64,000 nucleotides of DNA. Origin: an uncultured Clostridia bacterium (lineage in GTDB: Bacteria > Bacillota > Clostridia > UBA1381). The number at the start of each line of letters is the position of its first letter. Positions within the stretch are counted from its first letter, which is position 1. The stretch covers positions 1 through 64,000 of the forward strand of contig CANQJC010000005.1 in NCBI GenBank assembly GCA_947624165.1, written 5' to 3'. Under the pieces are notes generated by a model. That model had not been told where the DNA came from. It worked only from the letters and a program-made list of their open reading frames with translations, and searched no databases. Of this stretch, positions 53,107-57,616 are shown piece by piece. The position numbers were made by a program, and so were the translations under genes.

Positions 53107-54321
53107 CTATTCCGTTTTAATATCGGAAAGCGCGAGACCGTTTTCGCGGGCTATCTTCTCCAAATCATCGAACTCCGCTTTGCGCCGCACGACTCCGTAC
53201 CCGCGCGACTCCTTGACGCGCACGCTGCCGTAAGGCGTGTCTGCGGAAGTTTCGCTGCGCTCCAGCACATACCTCTGCGCCGTATGCTCGCGCACCCCGA
53301 TGGTGGTCGTATGCTTAAATATCAGCCGCAGCATTTCCTCGCGCTGCTCGGTACGGCATACGCACGTCAGTATAATTCCCGGTCTGTTTTTCTTCATGCC
53401 GACGGGCGTTGTAAACACATCGAGCGCGCCCGCGCCGATAAGCGTCGTAACGGCGAAGCCTATCGCTTCACCCGTCATATCGTCGAGATTGCAGCACAGC
53501 TCCGACACGTTTTCGCCGTCGTCCTCCGTTTCGCCGTACATGACGCGCAGATAATTTGCCGTTTCAAAATCCTTTGAACCCATTCCGTATCCGATTTTCG
53601 AAACGCGCATAACGGGCGGCGCGCAGAACTCCGACACGAAATGCTTCAATATTGCCGCGCCCGTCGGCGTACACAGCTCCTCCTCGACGCGCGCCGCGTA
53701 TGTCGGCACGCCCAGCAGTATATGCGCCGTGGCGGGGGCGGGTACGGGAAGAACGCCGTGCGCGCAGCGCACAAATCCGCTGCCCGTGTTTACTGCGGAC
53801 GCAAGTATTTTATCGGGATCCAGCTCGTTTATGAGCATACACGCGCCCACAACGTCGGCGACCGCGTCGGCGGTCCCGACTTCATGGAAGTGTATATCGC
53901 TCATCTCGCGTCCATGTACGTGCGCTTCCGCGCCGGCTATCAGAGAATACACGGCAAGCGCGTCGTCGCGCACCTTTTCGGGAACGGCGAGCCGAGATAT
54001 GATTTCCTCGATGTCGCGTATGCTCGTATGAGAATGACCGTGCTCATGCGAATGACCGTGTTCATGTGTATGACCGTGCTCGTGCGAATGACCGTGCTCG
54101 TGCATATGCTCGTCCTCGGTCACGCCCCCGACGACCACGTCCGTATGCGTGCCGGTAACGCCGTTTTTGACGGTTTTTTTCATTACGTATTTTATATTGG
54201 GTATGTTGAGCGCGTTCAGCTTTTCGATTTCCTTTTCAGGCTCCTGAAACAGCTCCAACAGTGCCGATATGATCATATCGCCCGCCGCGCCCATACCGCA
54301 TTCGAAATATAATGTTTTCAT
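53107..54321 (-). CDS. larC: Nickel pincer cofactor biosynthesis protein LarC, fused single ORF
   Basis: MKTLYFECGMGAAGDMIISALLEL; His-rich repeat; HFHEVGTADAVADVVGAC; CTPTGAAIL. Confidence 0.93.
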   Translation of the reverse strand: MKTLYFECGMGAAGDMIISALLELFQEPEKEIEKLNALNIPNIKYVMKKTVKNGVTGTHTDVVVGGVTEDEHMHEHGHSHEHGHTHEHGHSHEHGHSHTSIRDIEEIISRLAVPEKVRDDALAVYSLIAGAEAHVHGREMSDIHFHEVGTADAVADVVGACMLINELDPDKILASAVNTGSGFVRCAHGVLPVPAPATAHILLGVPTYAARVEEELCTPTGAAILKHFVSEFCAPPVMRVSKIGYGMGSKDFETANYLRVMYGETEDDGENVSELCCNLDDMTGEAIGFAVTTLIGAGALDVFTTPVGMKKNRPGIILTCVCRTEQREEMLRLIFKHTTTIGVREHTAQRYVLERSETSADTPYGSVRVKESRGYGVVRRKAEFDDLEKIARENGLALSDIKTE

Positions 54322-54392
54322 CACAATTTCCTCCCGTAACTCATCATAAATCAATTATACCCGAAACGCGCCGTTTTGTAAAGCTCGCAGTA

Positions 54393-54420
54393 AAAAAACC
54401 GCCCCGAAGGGCGGTTTTAA
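54393..54420 (-). terminator. Rho-independent terminator
   Basis: AAAACCGCCCcgaaGGGCGGTTTT. Confidence 0.75.
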
Positions 54421-54421
54421 A

Positions 54422-56341
54422 TCATTCATACATGATGTTTTCTCCCGAAATATGCGCGCGTACCGGCGTACCGTGACGCTTTTGGCCGTAAATATCGGTG
54501 ATTTCAAATTCGAACAGATAATCGCCGTTCGGCACGTTGCTTTCGCTCACGCCCGCGCGCAGCTTCATACCTGCGGGATCCGTCGCGTAGTCGTTTTTCT
54601 TATGCTCCTCGTCGTAGACGGCGAGCAGCGGAGCGATCCTGTCGAACGCGCCGAGCGGGTGGAGAGAGCTTGTGACCTTTCCGTTTTCGTCCGTGCCGGA
54701 CCACGCTCCGATAATGTCATAATCACCGCTTTGCGCGTCGCGTCTGACGCGTATACAGCTTTTTTCACCGTTGAGAATAACGGGTACGGAGTACACCGCA
54801 TAGTCGCCGTGATCCTTTACAAGCCGAATCGTTACGCATTTGCTGATAAGTCTGGGCAGCTTGCGCGAGAACACGTCCTTAAACACGCCGCCCTCCCAAT
54901 TCTGCTCGAGATCCTTGTGCGACGCGAGGAAAACGTATTCGCCCGACTTATCGTCCGCTTTATACACATTCACCGCCACGTCCTTTAAGACGCTCATGTC
55001 GCCCGTCACATTCAAGCCGTAGGAATTTGCGTCCAGAACAGTCATATACTGAAGCTGCTCCATCGCGACGTTGTACGACGTCCACGCCCACGAGGACGTG
55101 TAATCGGCTGTGTTCGACAGCGTGTCCTCGACGCTGCACGACGGACATATTTTACGCAGGAACTCCTTATAATTTACGCTCACTCCGTTGTCCATATACA
55201 TTTGCAGCTCGTCGTTGTCGGGCGATATGGGGTAGTACATGTTCAGCCCCGTGGAATCGTGCTGATTTGCCCCGCACACTCTGTAAACGACCGCGTCGTT
55301 CAGCGCGTCGACTACCGCGTCCGCGGTATTTCCCACGTAATCGTGTATTTTCATCGCCGTGTCGCCGAGGTCTATGAGGTTGGAATACCCCTCGTCCTCC
55401 GTCGCGCCGCCGTACATATGCGCGGACGAGACCGCGTTCGTCATGTTTATGTAATCCGACATTTGATTCGTGGACACGAGCATTTCTCCCGCCATACCGT
55501 CAAAAGCCTGGTTGAGCGTCGACACCTTCGACATATCCACGACCGACATGGCAGTTTCCGCGGCGGTGCCGTTTGCTTCGCTTCCGGCGTAATACAGATC
55601 GCATACGGCTTTGCATATGTCCGCTGTGTCAGAGGACGGGTTGTCGCATACATACTGTAAAACTCCCGCGTAATCGAACGTGTCCGAATCCTGGATACTC
55701 TGCGGGGCGACGAGGTATTTCGAACAGGTCGAGAGCGCGGCTGCCGTTTCTATGCCGCCCATGAGCGACGCGTCGAGACATACGATGTCGAAATGCTGTC
55801 CCGCCAGACTCATGGCGTATGATATCTCCTCAAGGTTGAGACTGTCCCCGTCAAAATTTTCGTCGCTTATCATACCGTCCATCGAACCGCCGCCCGCGCC
55901 GGAAAGTATCAGCATATAATTGTCGGATTTGTAATTTGACACGCCCCACGACAGGAAATCCGTGAGCGTTCTGTAATCGCCCATGTTCGCGGACATTGCC
56001 TGGTCCGCGAGATAAAGCGTGCCGTATCCGGCTTCGAAGCGTTGGTTATAATCGTTGTAAACGCCCTTTGTATTCCATTTCGCGCTGCCCCCGGTCTGCA
56101 CGACTACATTAACGTTTTCGGGATAATCGACGCTCATTATGCTTTCGAGCTTTGCCGACGCCGCGCCGTGCGCTGTTTCTTCGTTCCCGCCGCACATATA
56201 GACGAGAACGGTCCATGATTGACCTGTCGCGGCGGGTCTCGCGTGCTCGGCTCGGTCGTATATGACCTGACCGTTTCCGCATGAAGCGAGCGTAATTACC
56301 GCGATGAACGCGGCGATTATCGTTGCCGTTTTTTTCAACAT
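54422..56341 (-). CDS. Clostripain (C11)-family lipoprotein, predicted catalytically inactive
   Basis: Lipobox LASC; C11 scaffold WTVLVYMCGGNEE, SDNYMLILSGAGGGSMDG, FDIVCLDASLMGG. Confidence 0.85.
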   Translation of the reverse strand: MLKKTATIIAAFIAVITLASCGNGQVIYDRAEHARPAATGQSWTVLVYMCGGNEETAHGAASAKLESIMSVDYPENVNVVVQTGGSAKWNTKGVYNDYNQRFEAGYGTLYLADQAMSANMGDYRTLTDFLSWGVSNYKSDNYMLILSGAGGGSMDGMISDENFDGDSLNLEEISYAMSLAGQHFDIVCLDASLMGGIETAAALSTCSKYLVAPQSIQDSDTFDYAGVLQYVCDNPSSDTADICKAVCDLYYAGSEANGTAAETAMSVVDMSKVSTLNQAFDGMAGEMLVSTNQMSDYINMTNAVSSAHMYGGATEDEGYSNLIDLGDTAMKIHDYVGNTADAVVDALNDAVVYRVCGANQHDSTGLNMYYPISPDNDELQMYMDNGVSVNYKEFLRKICPSCSVEDTLSNTADYTSSWAWTSYNVAMEQLQYMTVLDANSYGLNVTGDMSVLKDVAVNVYKADDKSGEYVFLASHKDLEQNWEGGVFKDVFSRKLPRLISKCVTIRLVKDHGDYAVYSVPVILNGEKSCIRVRRDAQSGDYDIIGAWSGTDENGKVTSSLHPLGAFDRIAPLLAVYDEEHKKNDYATDPAGMKLRAGVSESNVPNGDYLFEFEITDIYGQKRHGTPVRAHISGENIMYE

Positions 56342-56423: not shown

Positions 56424-56464
56424 GAAAAAGGTGCCGTATTGCTTACCAATACAACACCTTTTCT
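56424..56464 (-). terminator. Probable terminator
   Basis: AAGGTGTTGTATTGGTAAGCAATACGGCACCTTTTT on minus strand. Confidence 0.6.
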
Positions 56465-56481: not shown

Positions 56482-56652
56482 TTATGCCTGTGAAGGCGCG
56501 CCTACGGGACAAGTACCCGCGCAGGCTCCGCACTCGATGCAAGTGTTTGCGTCGATAACATACTTACCGTCGCCCTCGGTGATCGCGCCTACGGGACACT
56601 CAGCCGCGCAAGCACCGCACGAAATGCAGTCGTCTGAAATTGCGTATGCCAT
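56482..56652 (-). CDS. 2[4Fe-4S] ferredoxin, 56 aa (absent from supplied ORF track)
   Basis: MAYAISDDCISCGACAAECPVGAITEGDGKYVIDANTCIECGACAGTCPVGAPSQA read from minus strand. Confidence 0.93.
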   Translation of the reverse strand: MAYAISDDCISCGACAAECPVGAITEGDGKYVIDANTCIECGACAGTCPVGAPSQA

Positions 56653-56788: not shown

Positions 56789-57616
56789 TCAGGCTTTTTT
56801 GCCGCGCGCCTTTGCCGGTTTGACCTGTGAAACGTCAAACTCCTTCATTGTCGTCTCGGTCTCGTCGTCGAATTTGACCTTCACCGTGCCTTTGAGCAGA
56901 CTGACATATTCGACCGTGCCGTTCCCGTCGGGAGTTTTCACAGCCGCGCCCTGCTTGGGTGCGTTTTTCAGAAGATTTTCATATACGTCCTGCTCGAATT
57001 TGAGACAGCACATCAGTCTGCCACAGGTGCCGGAGATTTTGGCGGGATTAAGGGAAAGCCCCTGCTCCTTCGCCATTTTGATCGAAACGGACGCGAATTC
57101 GCCCAAAAACTGGCTGCAGCATAACGGCCGCCCGCATATGCCTATGGAGCCGAGCGTTTTCGCTTCGTCGCGTACTCCTATCTGTCTCAGCTCGATCCTC
57201 GTTTTAAAAACGGTCGCGAGATCCTTCACAAGCTCTCGGAAATCCACTCTGCCGTCGGCTGTGAAATAGAAAAGTATTTTATTTCCGTCGAATGTGTATT
57301 CCACCTCGACAAGCTTCATTTCAAGCTTGTGCTTCTCGATTTTTTCAAGACATATTCTGTAAGCTTCTCTTTCAAGCTCCTTGTTCCTGTTATATCTCTG
57401 AGTATCCGCGTCGGTGGCGATACGTATGACCGCCTTAACGGGCTTACGGAACTGCTCGGAAGCGATTTCCCGTTTTCCCATTACCACCTCGCCGTATTCA
57501 ATGCCTCTTACCGTCTCGACTATTACATGATCGCCGCACGAAACATCGAAGTCCAGCGGGTCGAAAAAATATGTTTTTCCCGCGCTTTTGAAGCGCACAC
57601 CTATCACATTAAGCAT
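56789..57616 (-). CDS. ricT: PSP1-domain protein (RicT/YaaT)
   Basis: CGRPLCCSQFL, NPAKISGTCGRLMCCLKFE. Confidence 0.95.
   Translation of the reverse strand: MLNVIGVRFKSAGKTYFFDPLDFDVSCGDHVIVETVRGIEYGEVVMGKREIASEQFRKPVKAVIRIATDADTQRYNRNKELEREAYRICLEKIEKHKLEMKLVEVEYTFDGNKILFYFTADGRVDFRELVKDLATVFKTRIELRQIGVRDEAKTLGSIGICGRPLCCSQFLGEFASVSIKMAKEQGLSLNPAKISGTCGRLMCCLKFEQDVYENLLKNAPKQGAAVKTPDGNGTVEYVSLLKGTVKVKFDDETETTMKEFDVSQVKPAKARGKKA

What the first reader, a model, noticed from the sequence alone, without database searches (positions are those of the whole stretch)
54422..56341. Clostripain-family lipoprotein with both catalytic residues replaced
C11 peptidases carry a catalytic His in (W)DHGGG/NHGSG and a catalytic Cys in FDACLMG. 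Here the same positions read LILSGAGGGSMDG (His to Ala) and CLDASLMGG (Cys to Ser), confirmed in the DNA at both sites. The fold-defining surrounding motifs are kept, the ORF is long and intact, and it has a lipobox. This suggests a pseudopeptidase with a binding or regulatory role at the cell surface.
Basis: partly seen in the sequence, partly recalled or inferred. Interest (0 to 1): 0.6.

Follow-up and report, generated by a model that had tools for sequence, protein, structure and literature searches.

The report
Catalytically dead clostripain-family surface lipoprotein
This gut-bacterial gene makes a surface-anchored protein that kept the fold of a protein-cutting enzyme but lost both cutting residues; a whole bacterial family keeps such a disarmed version under selection, so it probably binds something rather than cutting it.

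Summary
ORF 54422-56341 (-) encodes a 639-aa lipoprotein with an intact clostripain (C11) domain (PF03415, E=2.7e-31). Ala149 stands at the catalytic His and Ser192 at the catalytic Cys. The Asp two residues before the Cys site (Asp190), equivalent to the S1 substrate-specificity Asp of PmC11, is kept.

This is neither decay nor a local oddity. Orthologues occur in 36 of 70 genomes of the same family-level group, and none of the 36 has the His+Cys pair. The 36 form one clade (bootstrap 100, SH-aLRT 99), while all 44 other C11 proteins on the tree keep His+Cys. Inside the clade the two positions drift (14 combinations; at least 12 and 10 changes). Fold, lipobox Cys (36/36) and Asp190 (36/36) are held, and dN/dS is about 0.03-0.15. 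No His or second His/Cys dyad is conserved. The gene sits in one conserved locus (psp1 upstream in 30/31; ferredoxin between in 21/21). An AlphaFold model (pLDDT 88) matches clostripain.

Best reading: a vertically inherited C11 pseudopeptidase lineage that works by binding. Catalytic death is strongly supported; the ligand, perhaps a basic peptide, is inferred. Eleven orthologues keep His with Ser and their inactivity is less certain. Closest precedent: bacterial pseudo-orthocaspases.

The parts
54422..56341 (-). C11 pseudopeptidase lipoprotein gene, 639 aa
   Evidence: ORF; PF03415 E=2.7e-31; orthologues in 36 of 70 genomes of the family-level group
56279..56341 (-). lipoprotein signal peptide, lipobox LASC, lipidated Cys21 codon at 56279-56281
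   Evidence: sequence; Cys21 in 36/36 orthologues
55178..56203 (-). C11 (caspase-like) domain, residues 47-388
   Evidence: Pfam; AlphaFold model and Foldseek to clostripain 9cip, E=1.7e-18
55895..55897 (-). codon 149 GCG, Ala at the catalytic His position
55766..55768 (-). codon 192 TCG, Ser at the catalytic Cys position
55772..55774 (-). codon 190 GAC, Asp at the S1 specificity position (PmC11 Asp177), invariant in 36/36 orthologues
   Evidence: PMC4850288
54425..55144 (-). C-terminal mostly beta region, residues 400-639, partly shared with canonical membrane C11 paralogues
   Evidence: model secondary structure; conserved blocks in A2
54395..54418 (-). perfect hairpin AAAACCGCCC-TTCG-GGGCGGTTTT followed by Ts just after the stop codon, likely terminator
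   Evidence: read from the sequence; not listed by the scan, probably because the stem takes up the Ts
56425..56463 (-). terminator-like hairpin between the ferredoxin gene and the C11 gene, so the gene is probably transcribed on its own
56482..56652 (-). small 2[4Fe-4S] ferredoxin gene (56 aa), conserved upstream neighbour
   Evidence: read in 21 of 21 orthologous loci tested
56789..57616 (-). psp1 (RicT/YaaT-like) gene, conserved upstream neighbour
   Evidence: PF04468 E=1.4e-38; in 30 of 31 orthologous loci

Best explanation
The gene encodes a vertically inherited, proteolytically inactive C11 (clostripain-family) pseudopeptidase anchored by a lipid on the outer face of the cell membrane. 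Shown by sequence: the catalytic His and Cys are gone here and the pair is broken in every orthologue, while fold, lipidation site, S1 Asp and overall sequence are kept under purifying selection. Inferred: the protein works without catalysis, using the retained caspase-like pocket and/or the C-terminal beta region to bind a ligand (most simply an Arg/Lys-containing peptide or protein segment, because the S1 Asp is kept) as an extracytoplasmic binding or sensing lipoprotein. Not shown: the ligand, any partner, and the physiological role.
For: Dyad broken in 36/36 orthologues against 0/44 other C11 proteins on the tree, one clade with bootstrap 100 and SH-aLRT 99, a single change of state. Inside the clade at least 12 changes at the His column and 10 at the Cys column, 14 letter pairs. 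Entropy at the His column goes from 0 in canonical proteins to a value exceeded by only 19% of columns in the clade, while Asp190 stays invariant 36/36. dN/dS about 0.03-0.15 in pairs not fully saturated. Lipobox Cys 36/36 and no conserved His anywhere. Conserved locus: psp1 in 30/31, ferredoxin in 21/21. Model pLDDT 88, pTM 0.85; Foldseek best hit clostripain 9cip, E=1.7e-18. PmC11 Asp177, two residues before the catalytic Cys, is described as the primary S1 residue (PMC4850288). Bacterial pseudo-orthocaspases likewise keep the acidic pocket with a lost HC dyad (PMC6426788).
Against: Invariance of Asp190 could be structural; one canonical group has Asn there. Eleven of 36 orthologues keep His with Ser at the Cys site, so residual Ser-based activity is not excluded in those (not in the window protein). 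No activity, binding or expression data exist. The gene is cleanly absent from some genomes of the same genus, so the function is dispensable there.
Confidence: 0.62

Rival explanations
1. The protein is a dedicated regulator (decoy, chaperone or dimer partner) of an active C11 paralogue in the same cell, as c-FLIP is for caspase-8.
For: The window's own genome has a canonical paralogue (WDHGGG/FDACLM, 852 aa).
Against: 23 of the 36 genomes with the pseudo gene have no other C11 match, including 11 of the 16 that are at least 90% complete (counted). The paralogue lies at an unlinked locus and belongs to a distant branch.
Confidence: 0.1
2. It is still an enzyme, using different residues (a relocated nucleophile, or Ser192 in place of Cys).
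For: Eleven orthologues keep His with Ser, formally a His-Ser pair.
Against: In the window protein the His is Ala; in its genus the Ser is often Pro (3 of 9 orthologues). No His is conserved across the clade; the only conserved non-lipobox Cys is Cys247.
Confidence: 0.07
3. The gene is a slowly decaying remnant without function.
For: Catalytic residues and the flanking Trp-Asp are lost; the gene is missing in some relatives.
Against: Intact ORF in all 36 genomes, dN/dS about 0.03-0.15, invariant lipobox and S1 Asp, fixed locus across several genera.
Confidence: 0.03
4. It is a surface scaffold or adhesion lipoprotein in which only the C-terminal beta region acts and the C11 domain is a passive spacer.
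For: Several C-terminal residues are conserved (Tyr460, Tyr517, Arg531, Asp567, Asp616).
Against: Most of the highly conserved polar and aromatic columns, including Asp160, Asp190, Asp324 and Trp89, lie in the C11 part.
Confidence: 0.18

Closest known systems
Clostripain / PmC11 (MEROPS family C11, Pfam PF03415)
   Same: Domain, fold (9cip TM-score 0.67 on target length), Gly after the His site, S1 Asp two residues before the Cys site
   Different: No catalytic His or Cys; lipid-anchored; extra C-terminal beta region
Bacterial pseudo-orthocaspases (YS/YN variants, family C14B; PMC6426788)
   Same: Clan CD fold, both dyad residues replaced, acidic specificity pocket conserved, clade-wide conservation
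   Different: Different family (p20 metacaspase-like), cyanobacteria and alphaproteobacteria, a few recurrent letter pairs rather than free drift; not seen described there as lipoproteins
CspC/CspA pseudoproteases of C. difficile (PMC6636752, PMC12880746)
   Same: Clostridial dead protease used as a signal-sensing protein
   Different: Subtilisin-like, soluble in spores; no homology. Works-like analogy only
Canonical membrane C11 paralogue in the same genome (G000:C9, locus L001)
   Same: C11 domain and conserved C-terminal blocks (DIY etc.)
   Different: Keeps WDHGGG/FDACLM; about 30% identity; unlinked locus

Membership tests
Peptidase_C11 sequence/fold family (PF03415) | Profile match above curated cut-off | tested here: met
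   109.9 bits against 25.8
Peptidase_C11 sequence/fold family (PF03415) | Caspase-like C11 fold | tested here: met
   pLDDT 88 model; Foldseek top hits all C11 structures, 9cip E=1.7e-18
C11 cysteine peptidases (active enzymes) | Catalytic His in the HG motif | tested here: not met
   Ala149
C11 cysteine peptidases (active enzymes) | Catalytic Cys in the D(A/S)C motif | tested here: not met
   Ser192
C11 cysteine peptidases (active enzymes) | Asp at the S1 site (PmC11 Asp177) | tested here: met
   Asp190, 36/36 orthologues
C11 cysteine peptidases (active enzymes) | Cleavage after Arg/Lys | not testable with these tools
   needs purified protein
Clostripain equivalog (TIGR02806) | Score above the curated cut-off of 550 bits | tested here: not met
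   33.2 bits
Pseudopeptidase (functional class) | Homologous domain with essential catalytic residues lost | tested here: met
   36/36 orthologues lack the pair
Pseudopeptidase (functional class) | Maintained by selection, not a pseudogene | tested here: met
   dN/dS about 0.03-0.15, intact ORFs, synteny
Pseudopeptidase (functional class) | No catalytic activity in assay | not testable with these tools
   needs bench assay
Bacterial lipoprotein | Signal peptide ending in lipobox with invariant Cys | tested here: met
   LASC, Cys21 in 36/36

The most novel reading that the evidence does not exclude
One lineage of family C11 gave up proteolysis at its base and was retained family-wide as a surface receptor for basic peptides: the S1 specificity Asp stayed fixed while the catalytic pair drifted freely, a natural separation of substrate recognition from catalysis in a caspase-like fold.
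Probability: 0.28. Interest if true: 0.62.

Novelty: new variant of a known kind. Interest (0 to 1): 0.47.

Why it matters
Proteins of this kind are likely to be annotated as clostripain-related peptidases by homology and counted as gut proteases. A whole clade of them has no catalytic pair in any of 36 genomes, so such annotation would be wrong as to activity. The clade offers a natural experiment: same locus, same fold, same S1 residue, with catalytic letters released in many combinations. That makes it directly testable whether a caspase-like pocket can be reused as a binding site. Pseudopeptidases are known in clan CD family C14 (pseudo-orthocaspases, MCA4); the open-access papers searched here turned up none in C11, which is a limited search.

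Tried and rejected
Relocated dyad: no conserved His, only Cys21 and Cys247 conserved. Pseudogene: rejected by dN/dS, intact ORFs and synteny. Assembly error: rejected by 36 independent genomes. Partner of an active paralogue: disfavoured, most carriers lack one. Link to sporulation: SpoIVA is found in 65 of 70 genomes whether or not the C11 gene is present, so the test does not discriminate. Operon with psp1/ferredoxin: neighbours are conserved, but a terminator-like hairpin lies between and the upstream block persists intact where the C11 gene is absent, so the synteny looks like vertical inheritance rather than a functional unit. Downstream neighbours differ between the loci compared (larC in the window, acyltransferase in L121/L122). 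Residue-level pocket geometry could not be measured because model coordinates are not exposed.

Full report
Observation. The ORF at 54422-56341 (-) is intact, 639 aa, with an N-terminal lipoprotein signal peptide (LASC). It matches PF03415 Peptidase_C11 over residues 47-388 at E=2.7e-31, and only weakly the clostripain equivalog TIGR02806 (33 bits against a cut-off of 550). The DNA gives GCG (Ala) at codon 149 and TCG (Ser) at codon 192, the columns of the catalytic His and Cys in canonical C11 proteins.

Orthologues in the genus. Of 16 genomes of the genus (own included), nine carry the gene, the eight others at 52-69% identity. Their His-site letters are seven Ala, one Ser and one Glu; their Cys-site letters are six Ser and three Pro. 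Asp190, the GGG after the His site and LMG after the Cys site are invariant. The own genome also has a distant canonical paralogue with WDHGGG and FDACLM.

Orthologues in the family. 37 of 70 genomes of the family-level group have any C11 match, and 36 of them carry this gene; no match of comparable strength was found in the other 25 genomes of the order. Records of the group include Candidatus Ornithomonoglobus merdipullorum and the isolate Lachnospiraceae bacterium MD329. I read the catalytic columns in all 36: HS 11, QS 4, AS 4, EG 3, AP 3, GS 2, DA 2, and one each of SG, QC, DN, DG, SC, ES, SS; none is HC. L107 and L114 keep Cys but have lost His; the HS group keeps His but has lost Cys.

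Tree. With the two catalytic columns left out, the 36 form one clade (SH-aLRT 99, ultrafast bootstrap 100) against 44 others that all have HC. The presence of the pair changes once on the tree; inside the clade the His column needs at least 12 changes and the Cys column at least 10. This fits one loss of catalysis followed by free drift. The order of loss, and whether the two Cys-bearing members are retentions or reversals, is not resolved.

Selection. Nei-Gojobori dN/dS is 0.11 for L004/L005 and 0.03-0.15 for the other pairs whose dS could be computed, some with high and therefore imprecise dS. Mean column entropy is lower in the pseudo clade (1.76 bits) than in the canonical set (2.10), but the sets differ in breadth. 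Within the clade the His column is more variable than about 81% of columns, while in canonical proteins it never varies; Asp190 is invariant. Columns conserved in canonical proteins and released in the clade are 54, 138, 147, 149, 192, 213, 215 and 264. Three of these are the dyad and the Trp two residues before the His; 213 and 215 lie in the SEE stretch downstream of the Cys.

No other dyad. Over the full length no His column is conserved in 33 or more of 36. The only conserved cysteines are Cys21 (lipobox, 36/36) and Cys247 (35/36). Asp160, Asp190 and Asp324 are invariant.

Locus. In 30 of 31 orthologous loci the psp1 gene lies upstream on the same strand, usually preceded by a small membrane-protein gene and often radA. 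A 56-aa ferredoxin gene lies between psp1 and the C11 gene in all 21 loci examined. In four genomes of the genus without the gene, radA, the membrane-protein gene, psp1 and ferredoxin are intact and an amidohydrolase-like and an MreB-like gene follow directly (these two named from their sequences only), so absence there is real and clean. A terminator-like hairpin separates ferredoxin and the C11 gene, and a perfect 10-bp hairpin with Ts follows the stop codon (read).

Structure. AlphaFold2 with a 32-sequence alignment gives pLDDT 88.1 and pTM 0.85. Foldseek against the PDB puts clostripain 9cip first (E=1.7e-18, TM 0.67 on the target), then the Parabacteroides and Bacteroides C11 structures. 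The residue equivalent to PmC11 Asp177, described as the primary S1 residue conserved through C11 (PMC4850288), is Asp190.

Interpretation. Shown by sequence: loss of the catalytic pair, clade-wide; retention of fold, lipidation site and S1 Asp; purifying selection; fixed locus. Inferred: no peptidase activity (very likely here, less certain for the HS members). Inferred with moderate confidence: a binding or sensing role at the membrane surface, with basic peptides the simplest candidate. Precedents: bacterial pseudo-orthocaspases keep an acidic pocket without the HC dyad (PMC6426788), and C. difficile uses the dead proteases CspC/CspA to sense germinants (PMC6636752, PMC12880746; titles and abstracts only). 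A regulator-of-paralogue role is disfavoured because 23 of 36 carriers have no other C11 match. A sporulation link could not be tested because nearly all genomes of the family have SpoIVA.

Novelty. Pseudopeptidases are a known kind and known in clan CD. In the open-access papers searched I found no account of a C11 pseudopeptidase lineage; MEROPS and subscription journals were not searchable. I rate it a new variant of a known kind.

Noticed in passing
L051, L052, L053, L054, L055, L058 (C11 ORFs): A clade of C11 proteins, mostly from rumen-type Clostridia, keeps His and Cys but has Asn in place of the S1 Asp (FNTCLS), which suggests a different P1 specificity.
   Followed up: partly
L074, C11 ORF (Armatimonadetes MAG SKYB128): A 992-aa C11 protein with DHGSG but YDASEM, Ser at the Cys position: possibly an independent loss of the catalytic Cys outside the Clostridia.
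   Followed up: no
L032 and L043, C11 ORFs: Orthologues with FDASCM: a Cys stands one residue after the catalytic position, with Gln at the His site.
   Followed up: no
G000:C9:13311-14219 (L001): The genome's canonical C11 paralogue is an 852-aa membrane protein with a long Gly/Ser-rich N-terminal part starting MDRTNRPRGREKNVTGGG; close copies occur in genera g2 and g4 (L148-L151).
   Followed up: partly
L164-L167: In four genomes of the genus lacking the gene, amidohydrolase-like and MreB-like genes directly follow ferredoxin; the C11 gene is cleanly absent.
   Followed up: partly
window 53107-54354: larC (nickel insertion protein, PF01969) with a His-rich repeat (EHGHSHEHGHTHEHGHSHEHGHSH); its position relative to the C11 gene changes between genomes.
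   Followed up: no
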